This document shows, in pieces, positions 17,137 to 61,543 of a stretch of 64,000 nt of DNA (the stretch's first letter is position 1; each line of letters begins with the position of its first letter). Position numbers and translations under genes: made by a program. This DNA comes from Agelas oroides. Taxonomy: Eukaryota > Porifera > Demospongiae > Agelasida > Agelasidae. Below the pieces are notes generated by a model that had not been told where the DNA came from, did not search any database, and was given only the letters and a program-made list of their open reading frames with translations. Where the stretch lies: the NCBI GenBank assembly GCA_949130485.1, contig OX422188.1, forward strand, positions 798,479 through 862,478, written 5' to 3'.

Positions 17137-19671
17137 TTAGAAGAATCGCATTCCTCCAAATGTTCCTCTGCCATGTCGGCTAAAGTGGACATCCCCTAGC
17201 GTTCTCCTTTCCATCCTCCCGTCCATGAAAGAGCCAGGTGGTCTGCAAGAGGTATATACCAAGAAGGAAGACAGTGCTATTCTTGTGACGTATAATTCAG
17301 TCCCTTTCTTGGATAAAACATGTCCTGCGCAGTGGATAACTTTGCATAACATCTAGGCCTGCCTTTTTGTAGGGAGATGTGGTTCATTAATTGTTCATAC
17401 AGTGAGGCTAAAGCCTGTTATAGCAAGGTCCTCTCCCTCGTGTGGTAAGACGAAATGAGCCTATGCACGAAGCTATGGCTGCAACACATTGAGTGGGCTA
17501 ATACCAGGGTCTAGTTAGTCTCCTCTCTGGAGCATTCTTTTATTCAGCACATGTGTATGTTGCTGCTAGTAAAAGAAAAGTATGGAGGGGTTGGTTTGAG
17601 TGTCTGGATCCTGGACTGTGAGACCAAGTCTACCTGATGCACTTCCAACAATATTGTCATATACTATGTACACATATGTGGCAGTCCCGGATAGAAATCG
17701 AATATTATTCCGTCCATATTTTGAGCGCATCACCAAGTTTGACGCACTATAATGCTGAGCTTCCGCTAAGGGCGGGGCTCATACGCGACATGTAAACACA
17801 TGAATATCTGATGCGTCTATGAAGCGCGTATGAGTCCCGCCCTTAGCGGAAGCTCAGCGCTATAGCGCGTCAAAGTTGGTGATGCGCTCGAAATACGCGA
17901 CGGAATAATATTTGATTTCTATTCGGGACTGCCACATATGAAAATCTTTTGTAGTCACAAAAAATGTGTCTCATACCAAAATGTTCATTCCCATAATTAC
18001 ATGCATGGAATTGAGGCTGGAGTGTATTAGTAGAGAGATACCTGAATTTATGTTCTGATAGGGGACTGTATGGGTTGAACCTTGGTCGTGGGACAGAGTG
18101 GGGGAGTGGGACCAGAGGGTGAGGAAGACGATCATAATCGCCACCTAAATGGATAATTGTGTGCATGTAAGAACATGAGAATAGAAGAAATCCAATCCAT
18201 GCATTTGACAAGAGCACATAAGAACGGGTGGCTCGAGTGAGAGCGTGTAACTCCAATAGAAGCCCGTAGTCCGGTCAAAATTATTGAACTGTACTAAAAA
18301 GAGAACACCTGGTCACATGCTTAGCAACAATGGCTTATGCCTATGCAGCATGTGCAGTACGTGTTACCATTTTAAGTACTGGCGGTAAATTCCGACTGGT
18401 TTCAAATTTTAGGAGTTGCATGCTTTCACTCTAGCTGCCCGTTCTTATGTGCTCTTGATTCGAATAGTTTCATTTTCACAATTGCACAGTACATACACCA
18501 CAGTGCACACAGAGACTACATGTATCTACATGTACTCACTAACCACATACACCACAGTGCACACAGAGACTATCTACATGTACTCACTAACCACATACAC
18601 CACAGTGCACACAGAGACTATCTACATGTACTCACTAACCGATAACTCCAGGAAAAGTCACGAAGCCTGGGGGATAAACAGCACTGGGGAGGTGGGAGAG
18701 AGGGTCTGCAGTCGTCATGGTGAACCATCTCTGGCGCTGCCTCCTTGACTCCTGTTTCCACTTGTAGTGCTGAATGTACGTCTGTGAAGAGAGGAAGAAA
18801 AGTGGTTGCAGGCGGGAGAAGGAAAAGGGAAGAGGGGAAAGGGAAGGGAGAAAGGGAGAAAGGGAGAAAGGAAAGAGAAGCAAAGAGGGAGAAGGAGGCG
18901 AGAGGGAAGAAGTAAGGAAGAAAGGAAAAGTAGAGCATACTAGAGAAAGAACGACAACTGTGGACAAGTTCTTACCTCCTTCCAGGACTGTCCTCTGCTA
19001 CCACCTAACGACGCTGCAGTTGGAACAAAGCATGGTGACCCTCTTATAACTCTCATTAGCTGGGTATTGCAAGTGGCCAACAACTGAGAGGGTCTGGGTA
19101 CAAGACCATGAACACATGGTGCCTACCAGCCTACCATGTAGCCTCATTGGTCTTAATAGTAAGAAAAATTGAAGTGAGTTAGCCTGGCTACAAGACTAAG
19201 TATGGCCTAGCTACCAGGGCAGCAGGTTAGAATTGTATCCCTTTTCACTTGATCATTGGAATGAAAATAGACATTGCTTTGATTATACCAAGCACCATAA
19301 GTGCAATTAAAATTGTTTGCTTTCGAGTTTCACTCAGGGATTGTTGAGGCAGGCTTCCAGCTTCTCTTTATTGTAACTGATCTACCAGCAAGCTTCAGCT
19401 CCAAGATTTTGTATGTGAGCATGCAAGCGTGTTCTACCTCCTCTGTCCTAAAGCACTCATCAAATGAACCAGGAATGAGAATATGGAATGCAAACAGCCC
19501 CATTACCTACCCTGCCCAAAATCTCTTGTGAATATTCCTCTCCAGAGGAAACTGTCCTGTCCTAGAATGTAGAGTTCACGGCAGGTCATCGTCATGGCAA
19601 CAAGACTGTGCACATCCAAGTATTTCATGATGTGTAACTGCATTAGAAGAGTGTGTATGTGACATGTATAG

Positions 19672-19702
<31 letters not shown>

Positions 19703-22121
19703 TGTGTGTGTGTGCATGACTGCCAAATGTGTGTGTGTGTGTGGTGTGTGTGTGTGTGTGTGTGTGCATGACTGCCAAATGTGTGTGTGTGTGTGGTGTG
19801 TGTGTGTGTGTGTGCATGACTGCCAAATGTGTGTGCATGTGTGTGTGGTGTAAGTATGGTGTGTGTGGTGTGTGTGTGTGCACGTGGCTGCCAACTCTTA
19901 CCTTGAGCTCTGGGAAGAGGCTGGTGAGTGTGCCCACTTCTGGTAGACCAAGAGCTACAGTCATAGAAATAACAGCCAATAACTACCAATAAGTACCAAT
20001 AACCATCAATAACTACCAATAACTACCGATAACCATCGATAACACAACATCAAAGACCAGTAAACATTTTCCATATAGCACTGTTTGATGTATATTTAGC
20101 CTTGCTTCAGACCACTCCCAAATTGTATCTCATAGGCGTGTCTACAGCAGCAAGAATTAATCTGGGAGTGCCTGGGAACAAAGCCACATATTAATGGTGG
20201 AAGACAGAAAGCAAACGCCCTTAATAAATATTGCTACTTTAAAAATCCGCACTTTTCCTGATCTTAGTGAGTAGCTTGTGTGCCACTGTGTCCTTGAAGA
20301 TGCGAGCCAGCTGGCTTGTATGTCTCAACATCTGGGAGGGAAGTGTTCTTTCTCCTGTGGTGCTGGTGTATTGGTCAAGGTTGAGTTGGGAGGAACAAGA
20401 GATGGTTTTTGAGGTCATATCTTCATCCTTGCCCTCTGATAATGTGGCCAATACTTGAGGGAGAGAGGGGGATGGGAGGGAGGGAGGGAAGGAGAGGGAG
20501 AGGAAGGGAGAGGAGGAGGAAGGAGAGGTGGAGGGAGGGAGGAAGGGAGAGAGGGAGGTTAGTGAAGAGAAAAGAAGGGGTGGGTGAAAGGGGAGAGTGA
20601 AGGGAAAAATTTGTGAGAAAATGAAACATATTTAGACACAGTGATTGGAAGCACAATATAAGACTGTAAACTCACACACAACTATTCTCATCAAGCTCAC
20701 CTTGAACAGCAAGAACTGGCCCCATGGTGGTCATTACCATGGTAACACCAATCTCCTCATTCACTGCAGTACTATAGTATCTCTTGACCACACCCATCAA
20801 CACCGTGGAGCCTCCCTGGTTGATAGAGACCAACACACATTAGGGCACAGCAGAATGTAACCATGGTAACATGTCAATACTGATCTTAATTGGAAACTCC
20901 ATTACAGCTATTAGTCTCATGCCCAGACTCCACCCTCTGGAGACAATTAAGTGCTTTTGTGCCGAGTCAGCAGTCTGAATTCTGAACAAACCAATGCAAT
21001 AGCGTCATGAAGATGTAATCATTGGCTTGGCCAAAATCAATATTGCTAAGGGTGTGGGTATGAGACTAGTTTGACTGCTACTGCTGTCATACCTCTTGTT
21101 CCATGAAGCCCGAGTCCAGCATGAGTGCATGCAGAGCAAGGCTCAGCACAGTGGCACCGCACGACACATCAGTTTGAAGCTGTTCTCTCAAGAACTGCTC
21201 AAAGTGATTTCGATTAGAGGATGCTGTCAGTGCCACTGAGTGATGCTGTGAGTCCTGCCTGGATTCCATAACTGGATTCAGTGCAGAATTCTGTAGGCTA
21301 AAACCGTGTCCACATTCCATACTAAAATCTTGTCCACATTCCATGTTACCACCTGTATTGAGTCTATTGGAAAAGCATCCTTGAAATTGATTGGAAGAAT
21401 CTGCTGCTTGACCACACTCTGGCTTTTCTTTAACCCTGTCAGTCTGGACATGCACATGACTGCAACTACGCATCTGATTGGCTGGGTTTGGTTCAACTTC
21501 ACTACCAGGCTTATGGAGTTGTTTTTCGTTGGATGGCCTTTCACCGATCTCTTCCTCCTCATGTACCACTAGATGCAGAAGGTCTCCACCAACAATACCG
21601 AGGTCATGCAGAGTTCTATCTTCATCCAAACTGTCACGTCCATTAAGCGAGAACACAAAATCTACACTGGAAAAATGCAGAGATTCATGGGTAATTTGCA
21701 TGGCGTACCACATAGCCTAGGATACTTGGCACCGGATACAAGATATTCCAGGAAATTCTTATGGGGTACAAAATATCCTAATAAATAGAATGCAATATTT
21801 TCCAAGGGGGTTCCAAACTTCCTGGAGAAATCCCATATTTCCTAGGAAAAATGGCATGGGGTAGTAGTAAATTTAGCACCCATGATGCAATATTTTCCAA
21901 ATTGGAAGGGCTAAGCGCTAGGGGGTTCCAAACTTCCTGGAGAAATCCCATATTTCCTAGGAAAAATGGCATGGGGTACTATAAAATAGCCTGCTCTGAC
22001 AGACTTACGTGACTAGTTTTTCGGAAGCAAGATCCTCTCTCAGGCTACCAAGAGTTGCTGTCTCCTGGGTGCAAAGGATGATGGTTGGCTTCTCCTTCGA
22101 CAAACGCACACGTACCTTCAT
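17137..22121 (-). CDS. FBXO7: F-box only protein 7 (complete)
   Basis: FBXO7 is an SCF substrate receptor that also binds the proteasome regulator PI31 and, in vertebrates, parkin. Ten minus-strand exons join in frame: 22009-22121 (ATG), 21093-21666, 20701-20815, 20253-20453, 19902-19954, 19511-19637, 18976-19013, 18640-18781, 18042-18144, 17137-17242 (TAA). They give 523 residues; human FBXO7 has 522. Residues 1-85 form the ubiquitin-like domain (starts MKVRVRLSKEK, includes LHDLGIVGGDLLHLVVHE). An FP-type domain starts near 210 (LALHALMLDSGF). The F-box lies at about 335-380 (LPEVGTLTSLFPELK then MKYLDVHSL and FLWRGIF). A proline/arginine-rich tail follows, with PPGFVTFPGVIGGDYDRLPH and RPRFNPYSP, as in human. 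The low-similarity linker at residues 95-205 contains short near-repeats (MECGQDFSMECGHGFS). It is head to head with parkin. Confidence 0.95.
17679..17934. repeat. Palindromic MITE, GTGGCAGTCCC family
   Basis: A 256-bp near-palindrome ending in TGGCAGTCCCGGATAGAAAT and its complement, flanked on both sides by CATATG. The inner arms CTTCCGCTAAGGGCGGG and CCCGCCCTTAGCGGAAG are perfect complements. It lies in the last FBXO7 intron and is non-coding. Confidence 0.85.
18490..18639 (-). repeat. ~48-bp tandem repeat starting at FBXO7 exon 8 donor
   Basis: Three units containing CACATACACCACAGTGCAC and TACTCACTAAC. Read on the FBXO7 strand, each unit begins GTTAGTGAGTAC, so the real donor (exon ends at 18640) is followed by two further copies of itself. 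Confidence 0.85.
19670..19885. repeat. (GT)n minisatellite filling an FBXO7 intron
   Basis: GT tracts interspersed with GCATGACTGCCAAATG, about four units. They make up most of the 264-bp intron between F-box exons 19902-19954 and 19511-19637. The His/Thr-rich frames through it are artefacts, although the exons on each side are real. Confidence 0.9.
20460..20600. repeat. Purine-rich tract beside FBXO7 exon 4 acceptor
   Basis: A GGGAGG-type tract. On the FBXO7 strand it is an extended polypyrimidine tract ending at the acceptor of exon 20253-20453. Confidence 0.75.
21800..21980. repeat. Direct duplication in FBXO7 intron 1
   Basis: A block starting GGGGGTTCCAAACTTCCTGG and ending AAAAATGGCATGGGGTA occurs twice, near 21806-21862 and 21920-21979. 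Confidence 0.8.
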
Positions 22122-22198
22122 TGTCGGATCGTGGTCGGATAATTAGGTTTACAATTCAAAATTTCGATGTTTACGGATATTAAGATAGCGTTTGCAAC
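22122..22198. promoter_or_regulatory. Bidirectional FBXO7/parkin intergenic promoter
   Basis: Only 77 bp separate the ATG of FBXO7 (22121, minus) from the ATG of parkin (22199, plus). The core promoters and 5' untranslated regions of both genes must lie in this interval, overlap it, or extend into the neighbouring first exon. It is A/T-rich, without a clear TATA box, and contains GGATCGTGGTCGGAT (22126-22140). Shared regulation is an inference from the geometry. Confidence 0.75.
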
Positions 22199-25038
22199 AT
22201 GGCCGCAGGAACGGATACGAGGGAGTCTTTCGACGTGAACGTGAAGGATTTTCAGGGCCACTCGGTAGTGATCAAGGTCACACCGACATGGGACGTGGCT
22301 CGTGTGAAGCAGGAGATATCGCGACACACGCATGTAGCCCCCGGGAACTTCAAATTGGTTTTTGCTGGACAAACCCTGGCTGAAACCCTCACATTATGGG
22401 TAGGGTGGTGGGTGTAGCTTGTATGTGCAGTGTACTACATAATCGATCTATGTTTTCATGCTGCAGTAATAGTCCAGGCCCAGATCTTTTAGACCGGGGG
22501 TGCCCGGTTAGAACAGTCTGGTGTCCAGACTACTGCAGTGGTATACATGTACTCCTGATCATCATGTTACTGTGTGCTATGGTATTTCAACGATTGATCT
22601 TGGACATTCACGGTAGTTGGCAAAGCAATGTTTCGATCACACTCTGGTAATCTTCCTCAGGCAACTGGGTTAGGGTAAGGGTTGCCTAAAGAAGATTACC
22701 AGAGTGTGATCGAAACGTTGCAAATAATGTTTTGACAGCTACCATGCATGTCCAAGATCAATATGGTATACATGTACACAACTCACAATTTTTCTCATAT
22801 GCAGGACATTGGTGTGCAAGGGTACAGCACACTACACTGTATCCGTGAAAGAGGTGTGGAGGTCACAATGGCCACCCCCCTAGACCACGTCCCCCTTGGG
22901 TCCATGCGACCTTCTTCTCCTCAGCACACCACACTCAACACTCCAACAAACCATACTGACCGACGTAAGTAATACTTGCAGCCGGGCTGTAACCTCATTC
23001 CCAGCTTTCCGTCACTTTCAATAGCCTGGAAATGTGGCTAGCTGAATTGGTTAGTTAGTCATTTTTAACAGGAAACGTTCTTTCAGCCTGAAGGCTTGTC
23101 TGTAGCCTTGAACTCCAGGCTTTCTGTTCCGGATTTTGTCTTGCAGCTTTGGAAAAAAATGTTCCAAAAACTAGAAGACACAATCCGGAACAGAAAGCCT
23201 GGGTTCGAGGCTAGTTTGTCTGTGAGGGAGTCCTACATAACAGTTAGTCAGTGTTCTAGCCACACGTTTAGTTTGTTCACGAAGCACGTCTTCAAACATC
23301 TGTTGAACATATTCTCTCAACATCCGTTGAACTTATTCTCTCCCACACACGCACTCTTATACACACAGCTGCTGCAACTCCCCAACACCGATTCTATGTC
23401 TACTGCAAGAAACCCTGTGGGGCAATGGCTCCTGGCAAGCTACGAGTGCGGTGTGCCGACTGCAAGGACACATCTTTTGTGCTTTCTGGGGTATGTCTAT
23501 GTACTTTCTTTGACAAGCATTTTGTTGTTGCTAGGGAACTAGTGAACTAGTGACTGAGGACATGAGAACAAGGCAAGGTCTGTTTGAAATACTATCAGTC
23601 AAAAAAAATGGACAAGGGTGGAGCCTAGCCTCGTTCCCAGGCCACTCTCCACCCACACACGAGAGCCTGGGAACGAGGCTACCCAGCTTCTTCTGTTGAC
23701 TGTAATCAATCCTCTGACCTTTGCAGGGCCCTGGAGGGTGGGATGATGTGCTGACTTCCAGGAAGCTACATGGCCAGTGCCACCGAACTGGCTGCAACGG
23801 TCAAGATGCCGTGAGTTCTATTGCAGGGTCCTTTCTCCCATATTCCTACATGTGCTCCCCCCCCACACACCCTCTTCCTTCTTGCTCCTTTCTTCCTTCT
23901 TATTCTCCCTCTTCCTTCCCCCTCCCCTCTCCCTCCTCCCCCTCCCCCCTGTCTTTACCCACAAACACAACAGGAGTTTTATTTCAAATGTGCCAACCAT
24001 CGCACGGAAGAGACTGAGGAATGCGTAGCTCTGCACATGGTCAGGGCTAACACCATCAATGTGGAGTGTGCATCATGCTTGGATGTTGAGTAAGTGATGT
24101 GGACCATTGAGCTAAACCATCTCTCATCTGGAGGGTTAGAGACGGTCTACTTGCAGTATAATACCTGGTCGCTGAATAATTGACATGGAGTGCACATGGT
24201 GCATTTTTCCTGCAGTGATTTGGTGGTGGTGTTCAACTGTCAAGCCCAGCACTGCATGTGTGTGGAGTGTTTTAAGCAGTACATTAAAGTCCAGCTCACA
24301 GACCGACAGTTTGAGGAACATAGAAACATTGGCTATACCATCAAGTGCCCAGGTCAGCGAGCTATCTACAGTACTAATCATGTAAATGTCCTTGCTTTCG
24401 TGAAATGTTTCACATAAATCCTTTTACCTTTTCCCCCTCCCCCTCCCCCTCCCCCCCTCCCCCTCCCCCTCCCCCCTCCCCTCCCCCTCCCCCTCCCCCC
24501 CTCCCCTCCCCCTCCCCCCCTCCCCTCCCCCTCCCCCTCCCCCNNNNNNNNNNNNNNNNNNNNNNNNNNNNNNNNNNNNNNNNNNNNNNNNNNNNNNNNN
24601 NNNNNNNNNNNNNNNNNNNNNNNNNNNNNNNNNNNNNNNNNNNNNNNNNNNNNNNNNNNNNNNNNNNNNNNNNNNNNNNNNNNNNNNNNNNNNNNNNNNN
24701 NNNNNNNNNNNNNNNNNNNNNNNNNNNNNNNNNNNNNNNNNNNTGACTCTGTTATTCTTTTCTTTTCGGCCTTTTTTTGTCTCTCCTCCACTATTTCCTT
24801 CTCTTTTTGTCTCCTCCTGCTCTTCCCCTTCGTTCTTTTCCTCCTCTCCCTTCCTTCTCGCCTCCCATTCCTTCTTCTCCTAATTCCTTGTCAGTCACCA
24901 ACTCACATCCCCTTCTCTCTCTCTCCAGGAGGTTGCATGCACATGACATGCAGCATGGCAAACTGCAAACACGAGTGGTGCTGGATCTGCGGCATCCCCT
25001 GGAACAGACAGTGCCAGTCCACACATTGGTTTGGCTAG
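22199..25038 (+). CDS. PRKN: Parkin RBR E3 ubiquitin ligase, interrupted by gap
   Basis: Parkin ubiquitylates outer-membrane proteins of damaged mitochondria after activation by PINK1. Exons: 22199-22399, 22805-22964, 23369-23490, 23727-23810, 23974-24089, 24216-24352, then 24929-25038 (TAG) after the gap. The first 273 residues hold a ubiquitin-like domain (1-85), a short linker, RING0 (about 122-203; ligands in FYVYCKKPC, VRCADC, GQCHRTGC, YFKCANH) and most of RING1 (VECASC, FNCQAQHCMCVEC, IKCP). The last exon encodes the end of RING2, GGCMHMTCSMANCKHEWCW, with the catalytic Cys and the His and Glu partners (human C431, H433, E444). Ser75, in YSTLH, aligns with Ser65 of ubiquitin and parkin. 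The protein ends HWFG, two residues short of human HWFDV. About 140 residues (end of RING1, IBR, REP, start of RING2) fall in the unsequenced gap. Confidence 0.93.
22618..22730. repeat. Foldback in parkin intron 1
   Basis: The arms TCGATCACACTCTGGTAATC and GATTACCAGAGTGTGATCGA are perfect complements around a short loop containing GGCAACTGGGTTAGGG. The CGAAACGTTGCA end recalls a motif (GAAATGTTGCA) seen near 7395, 7468 and 15443. Confidence 0.8.
23105..23213. repeat. Foldback element in parkin intron 2
   Basis: The left arm contains AGGCTTTCTGTTCCGGATT and the right arm AATCCGGAACAGAAAGCCT, followed by GGGTTCGAGGCTA. This is a longer-armed member of the TAGCCTCG family. Confidence 0.75.
23626..23681. 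repeat. Foldback element, TAGCCTCG family
   Basis: A 56-bp hairpin in parkin intron 3 with perfect arms TAGCCTCGTTCCCAGGC and GCCTGGGAACGAGGCTA. Confidence 0.85.
24544..24743. other. Assembly gap, exactly 200 N
   Basis: A run of exactly 200 N, flanked on the left by a (CCCCCT)n tract and on the right by C/T-rich sequence. The round size suggests a placeholder of unknown true length. It sits inside parkin, where several exons are missing. Confidence 0.95.
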
Positions 25039-26450: not shown

Positions 26451-28882
<2,432 letters not shown>

Positions 28883-30973
28883 ATGCCAGCTCTGGTGGCG
28901 TGTGGCAGAAAGTGGGAGATCGGTAGTGATGACCTTGTCCTACCAGGAATTGCATCCATCCTAATCCGCACCTTGTGGCTCATTGGTACTTCAGCGGGTG
29001 TGGTGTACTATCGCAATGCCCTCTTTTGCGAACAATCCCATCTTCTTCTGGCATTTGCCTTCTCAGTGATGGGTATTATTCTAGTCACTATATTCCTTGA
29101 GTTAGCGATCGTGTTCTTCAGTGCTCGAGGAACTATTGTGCGAACAAAGCCACGGAAACCAGTCGTTCATCTATTGCACTTTCGAGTGCTTGTTTTTATC
29201 CTGGAAGTTGTCTTGCTTGTAATTGGTACGGTATTTGCATTCAAAACCCAGGAAGAACCTGACAGGGTGACGTGCCCAAATTTGGACGATGCTGTATTAA
29301 TCACGCAGATAATTGTAGCTGTTGACTGGTGTGTGTTACTTGTTTTTGTCCTCCTCTTCATTGTGTACTTGGATCCCTGCCACTGCTATTCTGCCAAGGT
29401 CAACTACAGTCCCAACAGCAACATGGATAGAAATCTGTGGAGGTTGAGTCACTCCGTCTGGGAGAAGCGCTTTCGAGTAGCCTGCTGCTGTTCTGGCAGA
29501 GATGACAATCACCAGGTTGCGTACAAAGAAGTGGCAGAAATCTTTGCCCACTTGTTCTTTGACACGAATGTCGTTCTGTCGGACATTGCTGCGGGAATGA
29601 TTCTTCTCCAGAAGGAGCACCTTTCCCGGGAGCGGGAAAGGAGGTATCCTGTGGCTGAGGAGAACCACGGCTTGCTGGTTGATTTTGTTGACCTTGAGGA
29701 GAAACAGCACTTCAAAGATGCAATGCACTTCCTGAAGTATGCTCTTGGGATGTACACCTGGCCACTCTACATGTTCATGAACCTCTTCACTGGGTGCTGT
29801 AAACTCTGCTGCCGACTCAAATGCTGCTGCCGAAGCCAGAGACCACACATTGTGGAGGATAACCTGTGTCACTGTCACCTAGCTGCCCTGCACAAGGTGA
29901 CAGGTCTGAATGAAGTGGACATCATTTACTGCTCTTTCGAAAACGACATTTATCAGGTTCCCTTTTTGGTATGTCTGGACCACCGACGCCAGTCTGTGGT
30001 GATTGCAATTCGTGGGACGCTGTCACTTGCTGATGTTGTGACAGATCTCACTGCCTCTACACGGCCAATTGAGCTACCTGGTTTCCCCAATTTTCTTGTC
30101 CACAAGGGGATGCTAAAAACGGCAACTTGGATCCTGGAGAAACTGAATGAGGGGAAGATATTGGAGGAAGCTTTTAGTAAAGTTTTCAACTACAAATTGG
30201 TGTGTGTTGGACATTCACTTGGATCAGGTTGTGCATGTATTCTGTCAATGCTTCTGCAGGACAAGTATTCAAACCTTCAGTGCTTTTGCTACTCTCCTAC
30301 TGGTGCCCTCTTGAATGAAACAGCGGCCAAACACACCGAATCATTCGTGACCTCTGTAACCTTGGGAATGGATCTTGTTGCAAGACTGAATGTTTCAAAT
30401 GCTCACATTCTAAAGGAAGACCTTGTTCGAGTTCTGGAATCATGCAAGAAGCCAAAATGTCAGGTTTTGTTTGAGGGTATTCTTGAGACAGTATGCAATT
30501 GTTTTGGACGACCAGTAGTGTTTGAGGGGTCAGACACAAGTGATCAGCTAGAATGTGAAACCTCTCCACTGAACCCAGAAGATAGCTTAGAGCCACTTCT
30601 CTACAGGGACATGCCATCGCTCAGAACCCTCCCTACTGCTGCTTCAAACCAAGAGCAGGATGAGCGTCTGATGGCTGAGAGCAGCGGCGATGGGGATGAG
30701 AATGGTCAGGCACAGAACTCTCTTGTTCCCCTCTTTCCACCGGGGAGGTTGATACACATCTATGACTGCAGTGACCACAAGGTTTGCATCTGTGGCAGAC
30801 GTCAGCTAGAGGCTCGGTGGGTCTCCCGTGCAAAGTTTGATCGTGTTATAGTCTCACCAGACATGCTACGAGATCACCTGCCGAATGTGCTGCAGGATGC
30901 AATGAATTGTGTGTGGAAGTTTAAGACAGAGGAGGTGGAGAACTCGGCTATTTCTGGATTAGCTGCTATGTAA
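28883..30973 (+). CDS. DAGLB: Diacylglycerol lipase, beta-like, single exon
   Basis: An sn-1-specific diacylglycerol lipase, which makes 2-arachidonoylglycerol-type monoacylglycerols in animals. The protein has 696 residues (human DAGLB 672). The start MPALVACGRKWEIGSDDLVL matches the human beginning; an upstream in-frame GTG at 28865 is not needed. Four membrane helices lie at about 18-44, 54-80, 97-120 and 138-163. The lipase domain follows, with nucleophile Ser445 in VGHSLGSG, Asp497 in LGMDLVARL and probable His625 in PGRLIHIYD. The Ser-to-Asp spacing of 52 equals that of human DAGLB (S443, D495). The cysteine-rich stretch GCCKLCCRLKCCC is near 310, and the long DAGL-alpha tail is absent. 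The whole frame is uninterrupted, unlike its neighbours and the human genes, so it may be a retrocopy that stayed functional. ATTAAA occurs at 31083. Confidence 0.93.
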   Translation: MPALVACGRKWEIGSDDLVLPGIASILIRTLWLIGTSAGVVYYRNALFCEQSHLLLAFAFSVMGIILVTIFLELAIVFFSARGTIVRTKPRKPVVHLLHFRVLVFILEVVLLVIGTVFAFKTQEEPDRVTCPNLDDAVLITQIIVAVDWCVLLVFVLLFIVYLDPCHCYSAKVNYSPNSNMDRNLWRLSHSVWEKRFRVACCCSGRDDNHQVAYKEVAEIFAHLFFDTNVVLSDIAAGMILLQKEHLSRERERRYPVAEENHGLLVDFVDLEEKQHFKDAMHFLKYALGMYTWPLYMFMNLFTGCCKLCCRLKCCCRSQRPHIVEDNLCHCHLAALHKVTGLNEVDIIYCSFENDIYQVPFLVCLDHRRQSVVIAIRGTLSLADVVTDLTASTRPIELPGFPNFLVHKGMLKTATWILEKLNEGKILEEAFSKVFNYKLVCVGHSLGSGCACILSMLLQDKYSNLQCFCYSPTGALLNETAAKHTESFVTSVTLGMDLVARLNVSNAHILKEDLVRVLESCKKPKCQVLFEGILETVCNCFGRPVVFEGSDTSDQLECETSPLNPEDSLEPLLYRDMPSLRTLPTAASNQEQDERLMAESSGDGDENGQAQNSLVPLFPPGRLIHIYDCSDHKVCICGRRQLEARWVSRAKFDRVIVSPDMLRDHLPNVLQDAMNCVWKFKTEEVENSAISGLAAM

Positions 30974-42300: not shown

Positions 42301-45300
42301 TACGGAGCCATTTGATTCTGGCACAGTGTACATATCTTCCACAAACTCTACTTCAACAACTGTGTGTGTGTGTGGGTGGGTGGGTGTGAGGAGTTATATG
42401 TTAATTTCTCTCTTCCCATTTATCTACAATGGGGCCACTCATCCTCCCACTAACGTACCGTCATCATCAATGATGGTAACCCAAGACTCGGGTCCACTTT
42501 GCCCAACTCGTACAGTAAACATCTCGTTCCCCTCAAGGCCAATAGTGTCATTAGTGATGTCAAAACTGGTGCACACTCGAGTGGGAGTGGGGCTGGGTGG
42601 GAATGTGATGGTGCGGGTGGCAGGTGTGAAGTCCTCACCAGCTGGGTAGAGGGAACACACATGACAGTGGTGAGACTGGTTTCCTGTCATAGTGGACAGA
42701 AGATGTGCACATCCTTCTGCAAGTCTACTAACCGGTGGCAATATTTCCTGTGGTCTTTTGCACTGCAGTAACTTGTCGGATAAGTGGAGTAGCGATGCCA
42801 GTGGTGGTGTTGAAGCAGACAGTGACAGTGCCATTGTCTTCAGGTACTTCAACATTAGGTACGTTGGGGACCACTGTTGCAACTATAGGAGAGAGGGAAA
42901 GAGGGGATGGAGAGAAGGGTTGGAGGGAGGGAGTGATGAAGTGGAGGGAGCATAGGAGAGGGGAAGGAAGAACAAGAAAGAACAGTTAATGCACAATAAG
43001 TGAAGCTATGCTGAGGCAGTATCGTAGTCTCGTGAGAGAGCTCCTACCCTTGAAAGGGCGTCTAACCCGTACTCTTGGCCCAAACTTCTGTATAGGGTCA
43101 AAGTTTACTTTAAATGACAGCCCACCCTGGAGCGAGCTTAATTTGTGTGACTAATAGAGTACACTCGAGGAGTGTTGAGAAGCACAGCCTCAAGCACTAT
43201 GCATATCTGAAGCAAAACATCAACAACAATAACAAAACTTTGTGTTATACTTTCTCAAAGGTTGCGTGCTGTCTGGATTTGAGCTGGCATCTCTGTTACA
43301 CGTTGGTCTAATAATTCTGCTGTCAATTCCAGCAGAGTGATGTATTTGAGGGCATCGAGTTGCTGTAAACATACAGGAGCACTTTTTCGACGTTACAGAG
43401 TGCCCAACTGCTTCTTTGGCAATCTTGTAAGGTGTTCTGCCCATGAGTGCTCTTTTGTGAGGGTATCATCAGTGATGCTGGTACCATATGCTAAGGTGTA
43501 ACAATCAAAGCTCCTGATGAAGAATAACATACCATCGTCATCGGTGATGATGACCATGGACTGTGCCACTGTTCCCTTGCGTGCTCCCATCCCGTCCACA
43601 AACTCAAAGTCGACATTGAAACCCTCGTTATTCTCCTGAATAGTGTCGTTTATGATGGTAAACTGGGTACACCTAGTTGAGCCAGCAACACCACCGGGGA
43701 AGGTGAGGGAGCGAGGTGGACCACTGTTGTAGTCCATACCATCTGAGGGTGAGAGGAGAGGAGGAGGAGGAGGAGGAAGAGGAGGAGGATTCACATTCAG
43801 GTATTTATGCAATCAACCACAGGAGGTATGTGGTAGCTAGCTACATACCTTCAGCTTCTGCAGGAGATTTGTCTGATGCTGTAACCATGATGACCAAGTC
43901 TCTCTTTGTCTCAATGTCGGATCGAAGGCACACAGTTACGGAGCCATTTGATTCTGGCACAGTGTACATATCTTCCACAAACTCCACTTCAACAACTGTA
44001 TGTGTGCGTGGATTGGAAAGTGCGTATGAAGGATATATACTAGCTGTTAAAAACCAGCATGATTACAATTTGCTGGCTTGCAGTTGTAGCATACCATCAT
44101 CATCCATAATCGTGACACAGGACTCTTCTCCAGTGAAGTTTACTCGTACAGTAAACATCTCGTTTCCCTCAAGACCAATTTGATCGTCAAGGATGTTAAA
44201 ACTGGTGCACACGCGGCCAGAGGTGGAGCTGATCGGGAATGTGACTGTGCGTGTTTCAGCCGTGAAGTCCTCGCCAGCTGGGTGGAGAGAACACACAAGA
44301 CGGAGGTGAGACTAGTTCACTATCATGGAAAGTGTGTCTTAATTCCATCTTCCTATGAGTGCTTTCTTTGTGTGCAGATTGAACATCACGAGTCTTATTC
44401 CCAGACCAGCAAACAGTGGTCTGGGAATGAAACATCACACAACATAGCTTACCAGTGGCGGCATTACCACCTGCTCTGGGCTTTTGCTCTGCTATTAACA
44501 CCACGGGTAGTGGTGTAGAAATTCCACGATTGACGTCGAGGCAGATAGTAACAGTGCCATTGTCTTCAGGAACCGTTACATTTGGCATCACAAAGTTCAC
44601 TGCTAACACTGTTGGAAGAAGGAAGGAAAAGAAAACAAGGAAGAAGAGTGGGAAGATGAAGGAACAGAAGAAGAGAAAGAGAAATTAAGAGGAGGAGGAG
44701 GAGGAGGAGGAGGAGGGGATGATGGTATAACTACACTAAAATAGAAAACTACTATCTTCGACTGATAACTATAACTAAATACTTTTTGGTAAGGGATCTT
44801 GGAGTTATAGTAATTGATAAAAATCAGGTAACTAAAACTAAACTATTTTCAGAATCTAAAAACAAACTACAACTAAGCTAAAAGTGTAAGCTTTTAACAG
44901 TAAAACAACACTGTTACAGAGAAGAACATTTAGCATAGATTGCTGGTCTGCCAGTGGAAGAAGAGGAGGAGAAACAAGAAGAGGTGGAAGAAGAGGAGTT
45001 GGAGGAGGGGAGGAAGGAGTAGGACTATAAAATCTGACGATTGTGCTGCGTACTTTCGTCATCCATGATTGTGACCATGGTCTGTGAGTTTGGTCCCTTG
45101 CGTACTCCTGTGTCATTCACAAAGCTAAAGTCCACATTGAAACTTTCAGGTTGCTCCTCGAGTTCATCGTTTATGATGTGAACCTGGATGCACTGTGTTG
45201 AGCCATTATTACCAGCAGGGAAGGTAACACTGCGAGGAGTTCCACTGTTGAAGTCCATACCATCTGTGGAGGGGGGGGGGGGGGGGGATAAGGAGGAGGA

Positions 45301-48300
45301 GGAGGAAGAGGAGGAGGGGGAGGGGGAAGGTGGAGGGGAGGGAGGAGGTGGAGGGGGGAGGAGGTGGAGGGGGAGGTGGAGGAGGAGGGGGAGGAGGTGG
45401 AGGAGGAGGGGGAGGAGGAGGAGGGGGAGGAGGAGGAAGAGGTGGAGGTGGAGGTGGAGGTGGAGGTGGAGGAGGAGGAGGAGGTGGAGGTGGAGGAGGA
45501 GGAGGAGGAGGAGGAGGAGGAGGAGGAGGAGGAGGAGGAGGTTAATATTCAAGAGTAAGGTGCATGACAGCAGTTTTGCTGCAAAGCAAGTACCTTGAGC
45601 GTCCACTGGCATCTTCTCTGAAACTGTAACTGTAACCTCCACATCTCTCTTAGACCCAATGTTGGATCGGAGGCACACAGTGCCATTATTTTCTTCTCGT
45701 ACAGTGTACATCGGCTCCACAAACTCCACTTCAACAACTGTATGTGTGTGTGTGTGTGAGGAGTCATATGTTAAGTTCTCTCTCCCCATTTTCCTAAAAT
45801 GGGGTCACTCATCCTCCCACTAACGTACCGTCATCATCAATGATGGTAACCCAAGACTCGGGTCCACTTTGCCCAACTCGTACAGTAAACATCTCGTTCC
45901 CCTCAAGGCCAATAGTGTCATTAGTGATGTCAAAACTGGTGCACATTTGGCTGGGAGTGGGGCTGGGTGGGAATGTGATGGTGCGGGTGGCAGTTGTGAA
46001 GTCCTCACCAGCTGGGTGGAGGGAACACACAGAACAGAGGTGAGAATACTTATTTCTCTTGTATCAGATATGTGCAGAGAAAGGTGAAAGGTGAAAGGTG
46101 AAAGGTGAAATTGATCAATTTTCACAGTACCTAGGTAGTGTATGGTGCTTAGTTTTTCACAAATGGCCTTGTCAATATGCTGAGAATTGCACTCTTAAAA
46201 ACAATAATTTTGGATACTTGGAGGGCAGTTCTTCACAAAAAACAGCATTTCACGTTATTCCCATGTACAAGGTATAGCTAAGCATATATCCAGACACTCA
46301 AAGCTTACAGCAGGAACTAGAGCTAGCCATTATCAGGGAAAGCTTTCAGTGAGTTCTCTCAACTTATCACCACTGGTTGTTGTGAACATCAATGATGCAG
46401 ACACTCCTCGATTCCTTGCAAACAGCAGCCATTGATTACTCATAGCCAGTTCAGAGAATGAGCTTGTTTTAGAATAGGAACCATTAGCACAGCCACGTCT
46501 ATAATGAAAAGTGTGGGTGAAGCCACAAAGCTGAACTATTCATTCAACATTTTTTACGAAGCACCATCATACAGTGTACTAACCAGTGGCAATATTTCCT
46601 GTGGTCTTCTGCACCGCAGTAACTTGTCGGATGAGTTGAGTAGCAATGCCAGTGGTGGTGTTGAAGCAGACAGTGACAGTGCCATTGTCTTCAGGTACCT
46701 CGACATTAGGTACGTTGGGGACCACTGTTGCAACTATAGGAGAGAGGGAAGAAATGAAGGAAGGGAGGAGGGAGAGAAAAGAGCGAAAAAGGGAGAAAGA
46801 AAGGAAGGAAGAGAGGAGGAATTCGAAGGAGGAGAAGATGGAGGAATGAAAGAGGAGAGGGAGGACGAGATCGAGGAAAGGCCGACAAGGGAGAGAGAAA
46901 CAAGAGTAAGACGCACAGATATATTGTGCGTATGTATGTAGACAATCGCTATTGTGGTCAGTACTTGCTTTCTCACCATCATCGTCAACAATAGTCACAG
47001 TTGACATTGTGCGGCCAGTTTGAACCCCAGTTGTTCCCGGCTGCAGCGTAAAGTCCACAGTAAACTGCTCATCTCCTTCACCAGCAATTGTGTCATTCAG
47101 GATTGGAACTGTCGTGCAGAGTTCGGTACTGTTAGCTGGGAAGACAAGAGGTACTGACCCAGCACTGAAGTCCTGGCCATCTGCATAGTCAGAGAGACAC
47201 AGTTATCAATACAATGCTGGAACAACCAGTAGGCTATGTACGCAAACATAGCTAGCCAACATGGAGTATGTGTTCATGTATGTACAATATCCAGATAATG
47301 ATACACGCTAAAAGATCCCAACCCAGGGCCAGGCCTAACTGCTTCTGGAGTAGCATTACAACAACTGCGTCATGTTGCACTAGTCTTGAGAGCCTGAGTA
47401 CTATATATACAACCAACCCCTTGCATCAGGTGAGGTAGACTCAAATGCTCGTCCAGTAAGAGAAATGTCTTGTGCAGTAGTTCCAGTCTTCATCAGACAT
47501 ACTGTCACAGTGCCATTGTCCTCCCTCACTCTGTAGTTATCACTGGTGAAGCCAATAGTGACAGCTGGGGGAGGGAGGGAGGAGAGGGGGAGGGAAGGAG
47601 GAGGAGGAGAGGGAGAAGAGGGAGGAGAGAGATTGGCAAAAATGGCAAAACAGCAAAACATGGTATGAAAATCCATGTAATATTTCACAAACTCCACAGC
47701 AACAAATTTCTCTCACTATCATCATCAACAATAGTCACAGAGGACATTGTGCGGCCAGTTTGAACCCCAGTTGTTCCCGGCTGCAGCGTAAAGTCCACAG
47801 TAAACTGCTCATCTCCTTCACCAGCAATTGTGTCATTCAGGATCGGAACTGACGTGCAGAGTTCGGTACTGTCAGCTGGGAAGACAAGAGGCACTGACCC
47901 AGCACTGAAATCCTGGCCATCTGCATAGTCAGAGAGACACAGTTATCAATACAATGCTGGAACAACCAGTAGGCTATGTACGCAAACATAGCTAGCCAAC
48001 ATGGAGTATGTGTTCATGTATGTACAATATCCAGATAATGATACACGCTAAAAAATCCCAACCAGGGCCAGGCCTAGCTGCTTCTGGAGTAGCATTACAA
48101 CAACTGCGTCACGTTGCACTAGTCTTGAGAGCCTGAGTACTATATATACAACCAACCCTTTGCATCAGGTGGGGTAGACTCAAATGCTCGTCCAGTAAGA
48201 GAAATGTCTTGTGCAGTAGTTCCACTCTTCATCAGACACACTGTCACAGTGCCATTGTCCTCCCTCACTCTGTAGTTATCACTGGTGAAGCCAATAGTGA

Positions 48301-54300: not shown

Positions 54301-57300
54301 TTTCGCCTCAGTATATAAATTTGATGTCACTGTTAAAATTTTACAATAATAGTTTGCACAAAACATGCATGATGTACCAAAATAGTGAGTTTTACACACA
54401 ATTGAGTTATAGTTTATTGTCTCAGTGTGGTATAAACTGGATATACTACCTATACTCGGAGGTTTATACTTGGAGTATAGGTAGTATATCCAATACTTAT
54501 ACCACAGCAGTTAGGTCATACCATTTGCATCGTGTCATGCCACCATATTGAACTATAGTGATACTATTGAACTTGCACAGATCCCTTCTTGTACAGCAGG
54601 TTACAAGTTAACACCAACACTCTGCAAACTGTCCATACCTCAAGCAAGCTCATAGAGTAGTCTCATGTTCACATGACGTTAAAACATGGTCCATACCTCA
54701 AGCAAGCTCATAGAGTAGTCTCATGTTCACATGATATGGTCCATACTTCAAAGCAAGCTCATAGAGTAGTCTCATGTTCACATGACATGGTCCATACCTC
54801 AAGCAAGCTCATAGAGTAGTCTCATGTTCACATGACATGGTCCATACCTCAAGCAAGCTCATAGAGTAGTCTCATGTTCACATGACATGGTCCATACCTC
54901 AAGCAAGCTCATAGAGTAGTCTCATGTTCACATGACATGGTCCATACCTCAAGCAAGCTCATAGAGTAGTCTCATGTTCACATGACATGGTCCATACCTC
55001 AAGCAAGCTCATAGAGTAGTCTCATGTTCACATGACATGGTCCATACTTCAAAGCAAGCTCATAGAGTAGTCTCATGTTCACATGACATGGTCCATACTT
55101 CAAAGCAAGCTCATAGAGTAGTCTCATGTTCACATGACATGGTCCATACTTCAAAGCAAGCTCATAGAGTAGTCTCATGTTCACATGACATGGTCCATAC
55201 TTCAAAGCAAGCTCATAGAGTAGTCTCATGTTCACATGACATGGTCCATACTTCAAAGCAAGCTCATAGAGTAGTCTCATGTTCACATGACATGGTCCAT
55301 ACTTCAAAGCAAGCTCATAGAGTAGTCTCATGTTCACATGACATGGTCCATACTTCAAAGCAAGCTCATAGAGTAGTCTCATGTTCACATGACATGGTCC
55401 ATACTTCAAAGCAAGCTCATAGAGTAGTCTCATGTTCACATGACATGGTCCATACTTCAAAGCAAGCTCATAGAGTAGTCTCATGTTCACATGACATGGT
55501 CCATACCTCAAGCAAGCTCATAGAGTAGTCTCATGTTCACATGACATGGTCCATACTTCAAAGCAAGCTCATAGAGCAGTCTCATGTTCACATGACATGG
55601 TCCATACTTCAAAGCAAGCTCATAGAGCAGTCTCATGTTCACATGACATGGTCCATACTTCAAAGCAAGCTCATAGAGCAGTCTCATGTTCACATGACAT
55701 GGTCCATACTTCAAAGCAAGCTCATAGAATAGGTTACCAATTTTCATTTGCCCTCAAACTACATTACTACAGCTTCTGTGATATTGTTGACGTGTTAAAC
55801 CATGGCCCATACTTGTCCTCAAACTACATTACTACAGCTTATTGTTGAGGTTAAACCATGGTCCATACTTCAAAGCAAGCTCATAGATCACATTCATTTG
55901 CCCTCAAACTACATTACTACAGCTCCTGTGATATTGTTGACATTAAAACATGGTCCATACCTCAAAGCAAGCTCATACATATTCATTTGCCTCCCTATAG
56001 GATCCTGGATAGTTTACCTGCGTCTTCTGTGATATTGATCATGGCTGTGTCTTGCTGTCCAATCATAGCTCGTGTAGAGGGGTTGGACAGGACAGCTGTC
56101 AACATCTCTGTGCCCTCCACTATGTTATCAGAGAGGCTGGTGAAGTTGACAAACCGCTCCGTCTCCCCAGGCTGGAAGGTCACCACTTCATTGGTGATTG
56201 GAGTGAAGTCAGCTAGCCCTGAGGTCAATGTAGGCATAGCAAACAACAGCTGATTCACCACATCATTTATGATAATATTCTTTATAACCAATCTAGTCAC
56301 CCTCAAGATACATAGCTGAAAGGATTCATGATCAACAGCTGGGTAGCTGCCCAAAAGGAGGAGCAAGACAAGTGGACAGTGGCTTCTACGCCCACTGTCA
56401 TTCTTCCTTCTTCTTGGAAATTGCATTTTTGGGTGGTAGCATATTTTGATCACAAGATGCTACCTTACCACACAGCTGAAAGGATTCATGATCACAGCTG
56501 TGTAGCTGCCCAAAAGGAGGAGCAAGACAGGTGGACAGTGGCTTCTACACCCACTGTCATTCTTCCTTCTTCTTGGAAATTGCATTTTTGGGTGATAGCA
56601 TATTTTGATATGTACAGAATCTGATATTGGCTCTATTCACCTGCAGTTCCTACAACAGTTGAGAGAGACACAGAGACGGGAACATCTGCAACTCCAACTT
56701 TCACAACCCTGAGCCTGGTGGAGCCACCCTCTGCCACCATGTAGCCAGTCGGGTTAAACTGAATCACCACATCTGGACAGGAGGACAAGTTCATAGACAG
56801 ACATGAACCAAATCTTCATGACTACGTACATGATCTAGATCATGCACGACCATGAAGGTTTTTGTCCAGGGTTTTCTTACTAATGCTCGACAGCATGACA
56901 GCAGGACAGGGATTGGAAACTCAATCAACACCTTTTTGTTTGTATGTGCCATTCTATATATGTGGTAACCATTGGAAGTGTGACAAAAAGTGTCAAACTG
57001 CTGGAAGTGCTGGTGTGCCAGAGGTTTGGGGATGCTTTTTCCAACAGAAGAGGATACAGAAGAAAAAAACAAGATTCTAGCCTTGCAACAAGTCTTCTTG
57101 AAGCACGGCAAGGTTTTTTCCGCTACAGTACATAGTCGAGTGACAGTACGCGGGTGCTCGGTGGAGTATGAGTACAAATTTCTACATCAGTTCGCTCGTG
57201 TTGTTGCGCACAGAATGCCGTATACCAGCGTTTTATCTATTTATACGACATTGCTGCAGGGCCACACGAAGCGTTTTTGAAAAAAAAATTCCAGTTCGCC

Positions 57301-60300: not shown

Positions 60301-61507
60301 ATGCTGAATTATATCTACTATTTTTGCTTGGATGAGTTAGCTATAGTAGACCTTTCTGTACCTCCAGTGATAGCTATAAGATGTATGCAGATCCGAACCC
60401 AGACATGAAGTTTTAATTAGGCATCAATGGGAGAATTTTAAGTCCCTACTCTACTATCACCTGACCTCAAAGTACAAATTCCCATAGTCTGGTCTCTGTT
60501 AAAAGAGGGCTGGTATTGAATTAGCCTTAGCGAAATGACTCCCAGAAGAAGACTTCAAAATGCAATCATGTCTTGGCAATACATTATCACTCTAGTGTAC
60601 ACTAGATATTTTTAGAACAGCTGTCACTCAAAACATCAGAAGCTAGCTTCCAAGGAGGGTCTGGGAGGGTCTGGGAACAAGACTAAATTACAACATAATA
60701 TCTACTGGAAGCTTTGAAGCTATAAACACCAACCTTGTGACCATCTGTCCACTAGAAGATAAGCACCAGATGGGAACAGTATGTTGTTATGGTAACAGTA
60801 TGTTGTTATGGTAACTGATCACTTGCAACAGCTGGCAGTGCCAATAACACTATCAACCACTTCCAGGTATAAAAATCTTCATCATGAGTGAGCAGTGTGC
60901 TGCTTATGCTAAGAAATTCAGTCAGTCCTTACCACACGTGATCACAGATGCAGAAAATGCATGGAGCTTCTTATCCTGTTTTGACAGTATGAATGACTGA
61001 AGTTTCAGAGAGCAGTATCAGGCTATAGTTCTTTGTCTAATGAGGCATGGGGCTAGCCTCGTTCCCAGGCCCTCACCCGGCTTCCCGTCGCTTGCAGTAC
61101 GGTAACTCTCGTTCCCAGGCCCTCACCCAGCTTCCTGTTGCTTGCAGTACGGTTAACTGCAAGCGATGGGAAGCTGGGTGAGGGCCTGGGAATGAGGCTA
61201 GCGTGGGGCTATAGAGTTCAAGAGAGGTTTCACTCACTGTCATCATCTCTGATGGTAACAGTGGCTGTTGTTTCAGCCCCAAGAACCACTCCCGAGGAGC
61301 CAGACGGTAAGGTTAGTTGTCCAATGAAGGTTTCATCAGGTTCAACTCTCTGGTCTTCTCTGATAGGCACCATCACAATCTGGGTAGTCTCCGTAGGTGC
61401 AAAGGTCACCGACCGTGACGTTGTTGTGTAGTCTTCTCCAGCTGTATGTGTATGTGTGAGTAGAGAAGTGTGTATGTGTGTGTGTGTGCGTGTGCGTGTA
61501 TGTGTGT

Positions 61508-61543
<36 letters not shown>

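What the first reader, a model, noticed from the sequence alone, without database searches (positions are those of the whole stretch)
17137..25038. FBXO7 and parkin form a head-to-head gene pair
The two genes are transcribed divergently with only 77 bp between start codons. Human FBXO7 (PARK15) and PRKN (PARK2) are on different chromosomes, and human PRKN instead shares a promoter with PACRG. The encoded proteins interact and act together in mitophagy in vertebrate cells, and both have an N-terminal ubiquitin-like domain. A shared promoter would give co-expression. This may be an ancestral linkage or a sponge-specific one.
Basis: partly seen in the sequence, partly recalled or inferred. Interest (0 to 1): 0.92.

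Follow-up and report, generated by a model that had tools for sequence, protein, structure and literature searches.

The report
Sponge FBXO7 and parkin head-to-head pair
In this sponge-like genome the counterparts of two human Parkinson's disease genes, FBXO7 and parkin, sit back to back with 77 bases between their start codons and probably share a promoter, but close divergent pairs are common in at least one sponge genome and it is not known whether other animals have this one.

Summary
FBXO7 (minus strand, 22121-17137, 10 exons, 535 aa) and parkin (plus strand, 22199-25038) are transcribed divergently, with 77 bp and no Ns between their ATGs. Both identities are supported: FBXO7 aligns along its length with four FBXO7-type proteins (hhalign E 1.9e-41). 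Parkin matches sponge parkins and solved parkin structures. Caveat: parkin's IBR and first half of RING2 are missing at a 200-N gap. With 77 bp of room and one CpG-rich patch over both starts, a shared bidirectional promoter is the likeliest reading. Transcription starts and expression were not available.

The stronger reading (selected co-regulation, or an ancestral linkage) is untested. In Amphimedon, 11,379 of 40,122 genes are head-to-head with starts within 1 kb (PMC4773876). This window holds a second head-to-head pair, 513 bp apart. CpG patches here also occur where no promoter is known. Whether FBXO7 is needed for PINK1/parkin mitophagy is disputed. I could not reach FBXO7 of another sponge, so conservation remains open. 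Verdict: real, a new member of a known kind, worth one quick synteny check.

The parts
17137..22121 (-). FBXO7 gene, coding part; exons 22121-22009, 21666-21093, 20815-20701, 20453-20253, 19954-19902, 19637-19511, 19049-18976, 18781-18640, 18144-18042, 17242-17137
   Evidence: Hand-built model, 9 of 9 introns GT-AG, 535 aa; hhalign to a profile of 4 FBXO7-type proteins, E 1.9e-41 over 423 columns; F-box-like E 1.3e-6
22122..22198 (.). 77-bp intergenic region, putative bidirectional core promoter
   Evidence: Contiguous, 36% GC; 6 CpG, o/e 2.57
22000..22400 (.). CpG-rich patch over both first exons
   Evidence: 200-bp windows: o/e 1.14, 1.55 and 0.97 at 22000-22199, 22100-22299 and 22200-22399, against 0.40 for the window
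22199..25038 (+). Parkin (PRKN) gene, coding part; exons 22199-22399, 22805-22964, 23369-23490, 23727-23810, 23974-24089, 24216-24352, [gap], 24929-25038
   Evidence: 6 of 6 donors GT and 6 of 6 acceptors AG; zf-RING_12 E 3.5e-29, zf-RING_14 E 1e-18, ubiquitin E 2e-12; tblastn with P0004 finds 6 pieces in order
24544..24743 (.). Run of 200 N inside parkin, where IBR and the first half of RING2 should lie
   Evidence: P0004 residues 272-406 unmatched

Best explanation
FBXO7 and parkin are a genuine head-to-head gene pair whose two transcripts start from one short, CpG-rich, bidirectional promoter. With 77 bp between the start codons, both 5' UTRs and both core promoters must fit in that space or overlap the partner's first exon, unless there are unseen upstream UTR exons. 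Opening this one promoter would tend to fire both genes, giving at least partial co-expression of an SCF substrate receptor (FBXO7) and an RBR E3 ligase (parkin), which both bear on mitochondrial ubiquitin. Shown: adjacency, orientation, spacing, gene identities, CpG enrichment. Inferred: shared promoter activity and co-expression. Also inferred, with no direct evidence: the pair arose by rearrangement in this lineage and need not have been selected for a mitophagy function.
For: Exact spacing and models. Each ATG has an in-frame upstream stop. CpG o/e reaches 1.55 in the 200 bp covering the 77 bp, against 0.40 for the window. FBXO7 identity; parkin identity. In Amphimedon 11,379 of 40,122 genes are head-to-head with TSSs within 1 kb, and CpG rises at the TSS (PMC4773876, passages). 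A second head-to-head pair, with its own CpG peak, lies at 28369/28883 in this window.
Against: No transcription start or expression data. CpG patches are not specific to promoters here: 47 in 274 kb by my criterion, one of them (window 17551-18101) over a fold-back repeat inside the last FBXO7 intron. Of 10 promoter motifs recalled and scanned over 22000-22320, only a YY1-like site over the parkin ATG and an ETS-like site in FBXO7 exon 1 were found; no GC-box or TATA. Unseen 5' UTR introns could separate the real start sites.
Confidence: 0.7

Rival explanations
1. The linkage is kept by selection because FBXO7 and parkin need matched expression for mitochondrial quality control; it should then be shared by many sponges, or be an ancestral animal linkage lost in vertebrates, where parkin instead pairs with PACRG.
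For: FBXO7 is reported to facilitate PINK1/Parkin mitophagy in cultured cells, and ntc (fly FBXO7) provides basal mitochondrial ubiquitin for Pink1 (PMC10427020, passages). Conserved head-to-head pairs of partners exist: integrin alpha/beta in Capsaspora and Corallochytrium, co-expressed in Capsaspora (PMC5560861, passages). The 77-bp spacing is tighter than the neighbouring pair's 513 bp.
Against: No second species could be examined: FBXO7 of a named sponge was not found and contig scans gave nothing. [quoted passage not shown] In humans, neighbouring genes are frequently co-expressed but rarely functionally related (PMC5572396, start of abstract).
Confidence: 0.15
2. A chance neighbour pair with no shared regulation: two independent promoters overlap in a compact stretch.
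For: Divergent close pairs are frequent in Amphimedon and a second one lies 6 kb away. My own rough estimate with assumed numbers: if 28% of genes are in such pairs and each gene has about 50 known partners, a genome would hold about 7 partner pairs by chance.
Against: 77 bp leaves little room for two separate promoters, and the CpG patch is single and spans both starts.
Confidence: 0.13
3. Assembly artefact: the two genes were joined wrongly.
For: There is a gap inside parkin (24544-24743).
Against: The gap is 2.3 kb from the intergenic region, which is contiguous. The window lies in a 10.5-Mb contig. Exons on both sides of the gap match one parkin in order and strand. The two stretches searched in the whole assembly (FBXO7 exon 2, and the frame holding parkin's last exon) each match one place only.
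Confidence: 0.02

Closest known systems
Parkin-PACRG bidirectional promoter
   Same: Parkin transcribed divergently from a close neighbour (start sites separated by about 200 bp, PMC5951884, start of abstract)
   Different: The partner here is FBXO7, not PACRG; PACRG's own place in this genome could not be searched
Bidirectional promoters of Amphimedon queenslandica (PMC4773876, passages)
   Same: Divergent genes within 1 kb, CpG rise at the start sites
   Different: Those are classed by annotated transcription starts; here only start codons are known. The Sp1/GC-box that is common there was not found here by my recalled pattern
Head-to-head integrin alpha/beta pairs of Capsaspora and Corallochytrium (PMC5560861, passages)
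   Same: Head-to-head genes whose products work together
   Different: Found in two lineages, and co-expressed in Capsaspora; neither is known for FBXO7-parkin

Membership tests
FBXO7 | F-box | tested here: met
   F-box-like PF12937 E 1.3e-6, 28.5 bits against cut-off 24.3; F-box PF00646 18.7 bits, below its cut-off 20.5
FBXO7 | N-terminal ubiquitin-like domain | tested here: inconclusive
   PF00240 E 0.026, 14.7 bits against cut-off 25.4; aligns with the N-terminus of the FBXO7 profile in hhalign
FBXO7 | FP / PI31 N-terminal domain between Ubl and F-box | tested here: inconclusive
   PF11566 not reported at E up to 0.1, and no solved structure matched at E up to 0.001; PF11566 is in octopus and Actinia FBXO7, with which this part aligns
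FBXO7 | Full-length collinearity, with C-terminal GVIGGDYD / RPRF tail | tested here: met
   423 aligned columns, E 1.9e-41
Parkin | Ubl, RING0 and RING1 | tested here: met
   PF00240 2e-12, PF17976 3.5e-29, PF17978 1e-18; the RING1 match covers profile positions 1-63 of 91, the rest being at the gap
Parkin | IBR domain | not testable with these tools
   Sequence missing at the N gap; residues 272-406 of P0004 unmatched in 274 kb; whole-assembly search unanswered
Parkin | RING2 with catalytic cysteine (identity of the cysteine recalled) | tested here: met
   Last exon reads GGCMHMTC, as in P0004 and Oscarella parkin; only the second half of RING2 is present
Bidirectional gene pair | Divergent genes, starts within 1 kb | tested here: met
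   77 bp between start codons; transcription starts unknown
Bidirectional gene pair | Shared promoter activity and co-expression | not testable with these tools
   No expression or start-site data
Conserved microsynteny | Same adjacency in a second lineage | not testable with these tools
   No second genome with both genes reachable

The most novel reading that the evidence does not exclude
FBXO7-parkin is an ancient animal gene pair under one promoter that kept two arms of mitochondrial ubiquitin signalling in step before neurons existed; vertebrates broke it up and parkin took PACRG as its promoter partner.
Probability: 0.1. Interest if true: 0.85.

Novelty: new member of a known kind. Interest (0 to 1): 0.38.

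Why it matters
If other sponges or cnidarians share the linkage, it would be evolutionary evidence, independent of disputed cell-culture assays, that FBXO7 and parkin belong to one module, and would offer a natural test of whether promoter sharing predicts joint function. If only this lineage has it, it is an ordinary example of the divergent pairs frequent in Amphimedon.

Tried and rejected
Cross-species linkage through protein records: the parkin search gave 58 proteins at E up to 0.001, including Dysidea avara, Oscarella lobularis and one with an Ephydatia-style gene number (Em0008g340a; that reading is recalled), so I looked for FBXO7 of the same species to compare contigs or gene numbers. 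The FBXO7 search scored only the 7,995 candidates sharing most words and gave 3 proteins: two octopus, one without a name or organism. A second one, with a rearranged query that brought the conserved stretches together, scored 306 candidates and gave 3 at E up to 10: two from anemones (Actinostola, Actinia) and one weak hit from a eukprot record. No linkage result either way; these searches are not evidence that sponges lack the linkage.

Contig scans: viral contigs with FBXO7 and with a parkin alignment, and prokaryote genome contigs with the parkin alignment, gave no relative.

Local gene map: codon-usage scoring of 274 kb was too insensitive to count head-to-head pairs. It kept 52 stretches, among them 1 of FBXO7's 10 exons (itself in the training set) and none of parkin's 7. 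So no genome-wide or local rate is claimed for this species; the baseline comes from Amphimedon.

Solved structures: FBXO7 matched none at E up to 0.001. For parkin the top-scoring rows were polyubiquitins matching the Ubl; the best parkin chain (6glc) had E 4.2e-45.

Artefact by misassembly: rejected (see rivals). FBXO7 being a mere PI31-like protein: rejected, because an F-box is present.

Literature: 'fbxo7 parkin sponge' 9 papers, all listed; 'fbxo7 parkin synteny' 1; 'parkin pink1 porifera evolution' 6; five FBXO7/PI31 terms 0; none is about this pair by title. One search held 285 papers with at least 3 of 6 terms, of which I saw 15. Only openly licensed papers are held.

Full report
What is there. 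The window is part of a 259-Mb, 141-contig assembly (C6:798479-862478), on a contig of 10.5 Mb. Parkin's nearest named relatives are sponge proteins (Dysidea avara, P0009, 50% identity over 97% of the query), so the source is sponge-like; no call names the species. On the minus strand a 10-exon gene runs from ATG 22121 to stop 17137; on the plus strand a gene runs from ATG 22199 to stop 25038. Between the ATGs are 77 bp without N. The introns that could be modelled are GT-AG (9 of 9 in FBXO7; 6 donors and 6 acceptors in parkin), and each ATG is preceded by an in-frame stop. The models were built by eye, not from transcripts.

Identity. FBXO7: the octopus protein named F-box only protein 7 was the best hit of 3 (E 1.1e-15). 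A profile of four relatives found with the window's own sequence (two named FBXO7, one unnamed with FP and F-box domains, one hypothetical Actinostola protein) aligns over 423 columns with E 1.9e-41. Pfam reports one F-box model above its cut-off, the Ubl only weakly, and no FP domain, and no solved structure matched; these are the weak points. Parkin: RING0, RING1 and Ubl are strong, solved parkins match at best E 4.2e-45, and 58 relatives were found, the nearest (P0004) 69% identical in alignment. tblastn with P0004 hits six pieces in order and finds nothing for residues 272-406, which fall at the 200-N gap.

Promoter. The 77 bp holds 6 CpG (o/e 2.57); 200-bp windows over both first exons reach 1.55 against 0.40 for the window. 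That fits a shared promoter but is not specific: by my criterion 47 CpG patches occur in 274 kb, including one (window 17551-18101) over a fold-back repeat in the last FBXO7 intron (arms of 71 and 42 nt). Of ten recalled motifs, only YY1-like and ETS-like sites appear.

How unusual. [quoted passage not shown] Here a second pair lies about 6 kb away: an RIIa-domain gene that I take for ROPN1L (PF02197 E 4.1e-5 on a piece joined by eye; name recalled) with ATG at 28369 minus, and a lipase that I take for a diacylglycerol lipase (PF01764 E 2.2e-15; name recalled) with ATG at 28883 plus, 513 bp apart. So the arrangement is ordinary in kind; what is notable is the identity of the partners. No rate of such pairs was obtained for this genome itself.

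Function. The case for joint action is mixed. [quoted passage not shown] In humans neighbouring genes are frequently co-expressed but rarely functionally related (PMC5572396, start of abstract). Against this, head-to-head integrin alpha/beta genes in unicellular holozoans show that functional partners can be kept this way (PMC5560861, passages).

What could not be decided. No other genome with both genes could be reached, expression data are not held, and the search for PACRG in this genome did not complete (14 tries, listed under steps). What the sequence does show is that the gene next to parkin's start here is FBXO7 and not PACRG.

Verdict. A shared promoter is likely. Conservation, selection and a mitophagy rationale remain conjecture. 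It is a new member of a known kind, with a cheap and decisive synteny test outstanding.

Noticed in passing
window 26454-30973: Second head-to-head pair: an RIIa-domain gene (ROPN1L-like, name recalled; 3' end not established) with ATG at 28369 minus, and a lipase-3 gene (diacylglycerol-lipase-like, name recalled) with ATG at 28883 plus, 513 bp apart with a CpG peak between. Parkin and the RIIa gene are convergent.
   Followed up: partly
window 17673-17940: Fold-back element inside the last FBXO7 intron (arm pairs of 71 nt, 92%, and 42 nt, 95% complementary) that is itself CpG-rich, a warning against reading CpG patches as promoters here.
   Followed up: partly
window 33000-62000, minus strand: Run of Calx-beta-type exons: 3 of 6 ORFs scanned hit PF03160, at 45025-45804, 56000-56459 and 61230-61703; the 3 ORFs at 33-35 kb hit nothing. 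Duplicated blocks are seen by eye in the ORF list.
   Followed up: no
window 54986-55848: Tandem array of a short unit giving repeated HTSKQAHRVVSCSHDMV-type reading frames (by eye).
   Followed up: no
G000:C6:787850-796516 (L003/L004), minus strand: Single open frame of 2,889 aa just upstream of the window, filamin-like by recalled motifs only.
   Followed up: no
   Followed up: no
protein P0063: An Actinia FBXO7-like protein carries an additional UBA domain.
   Followed up: no
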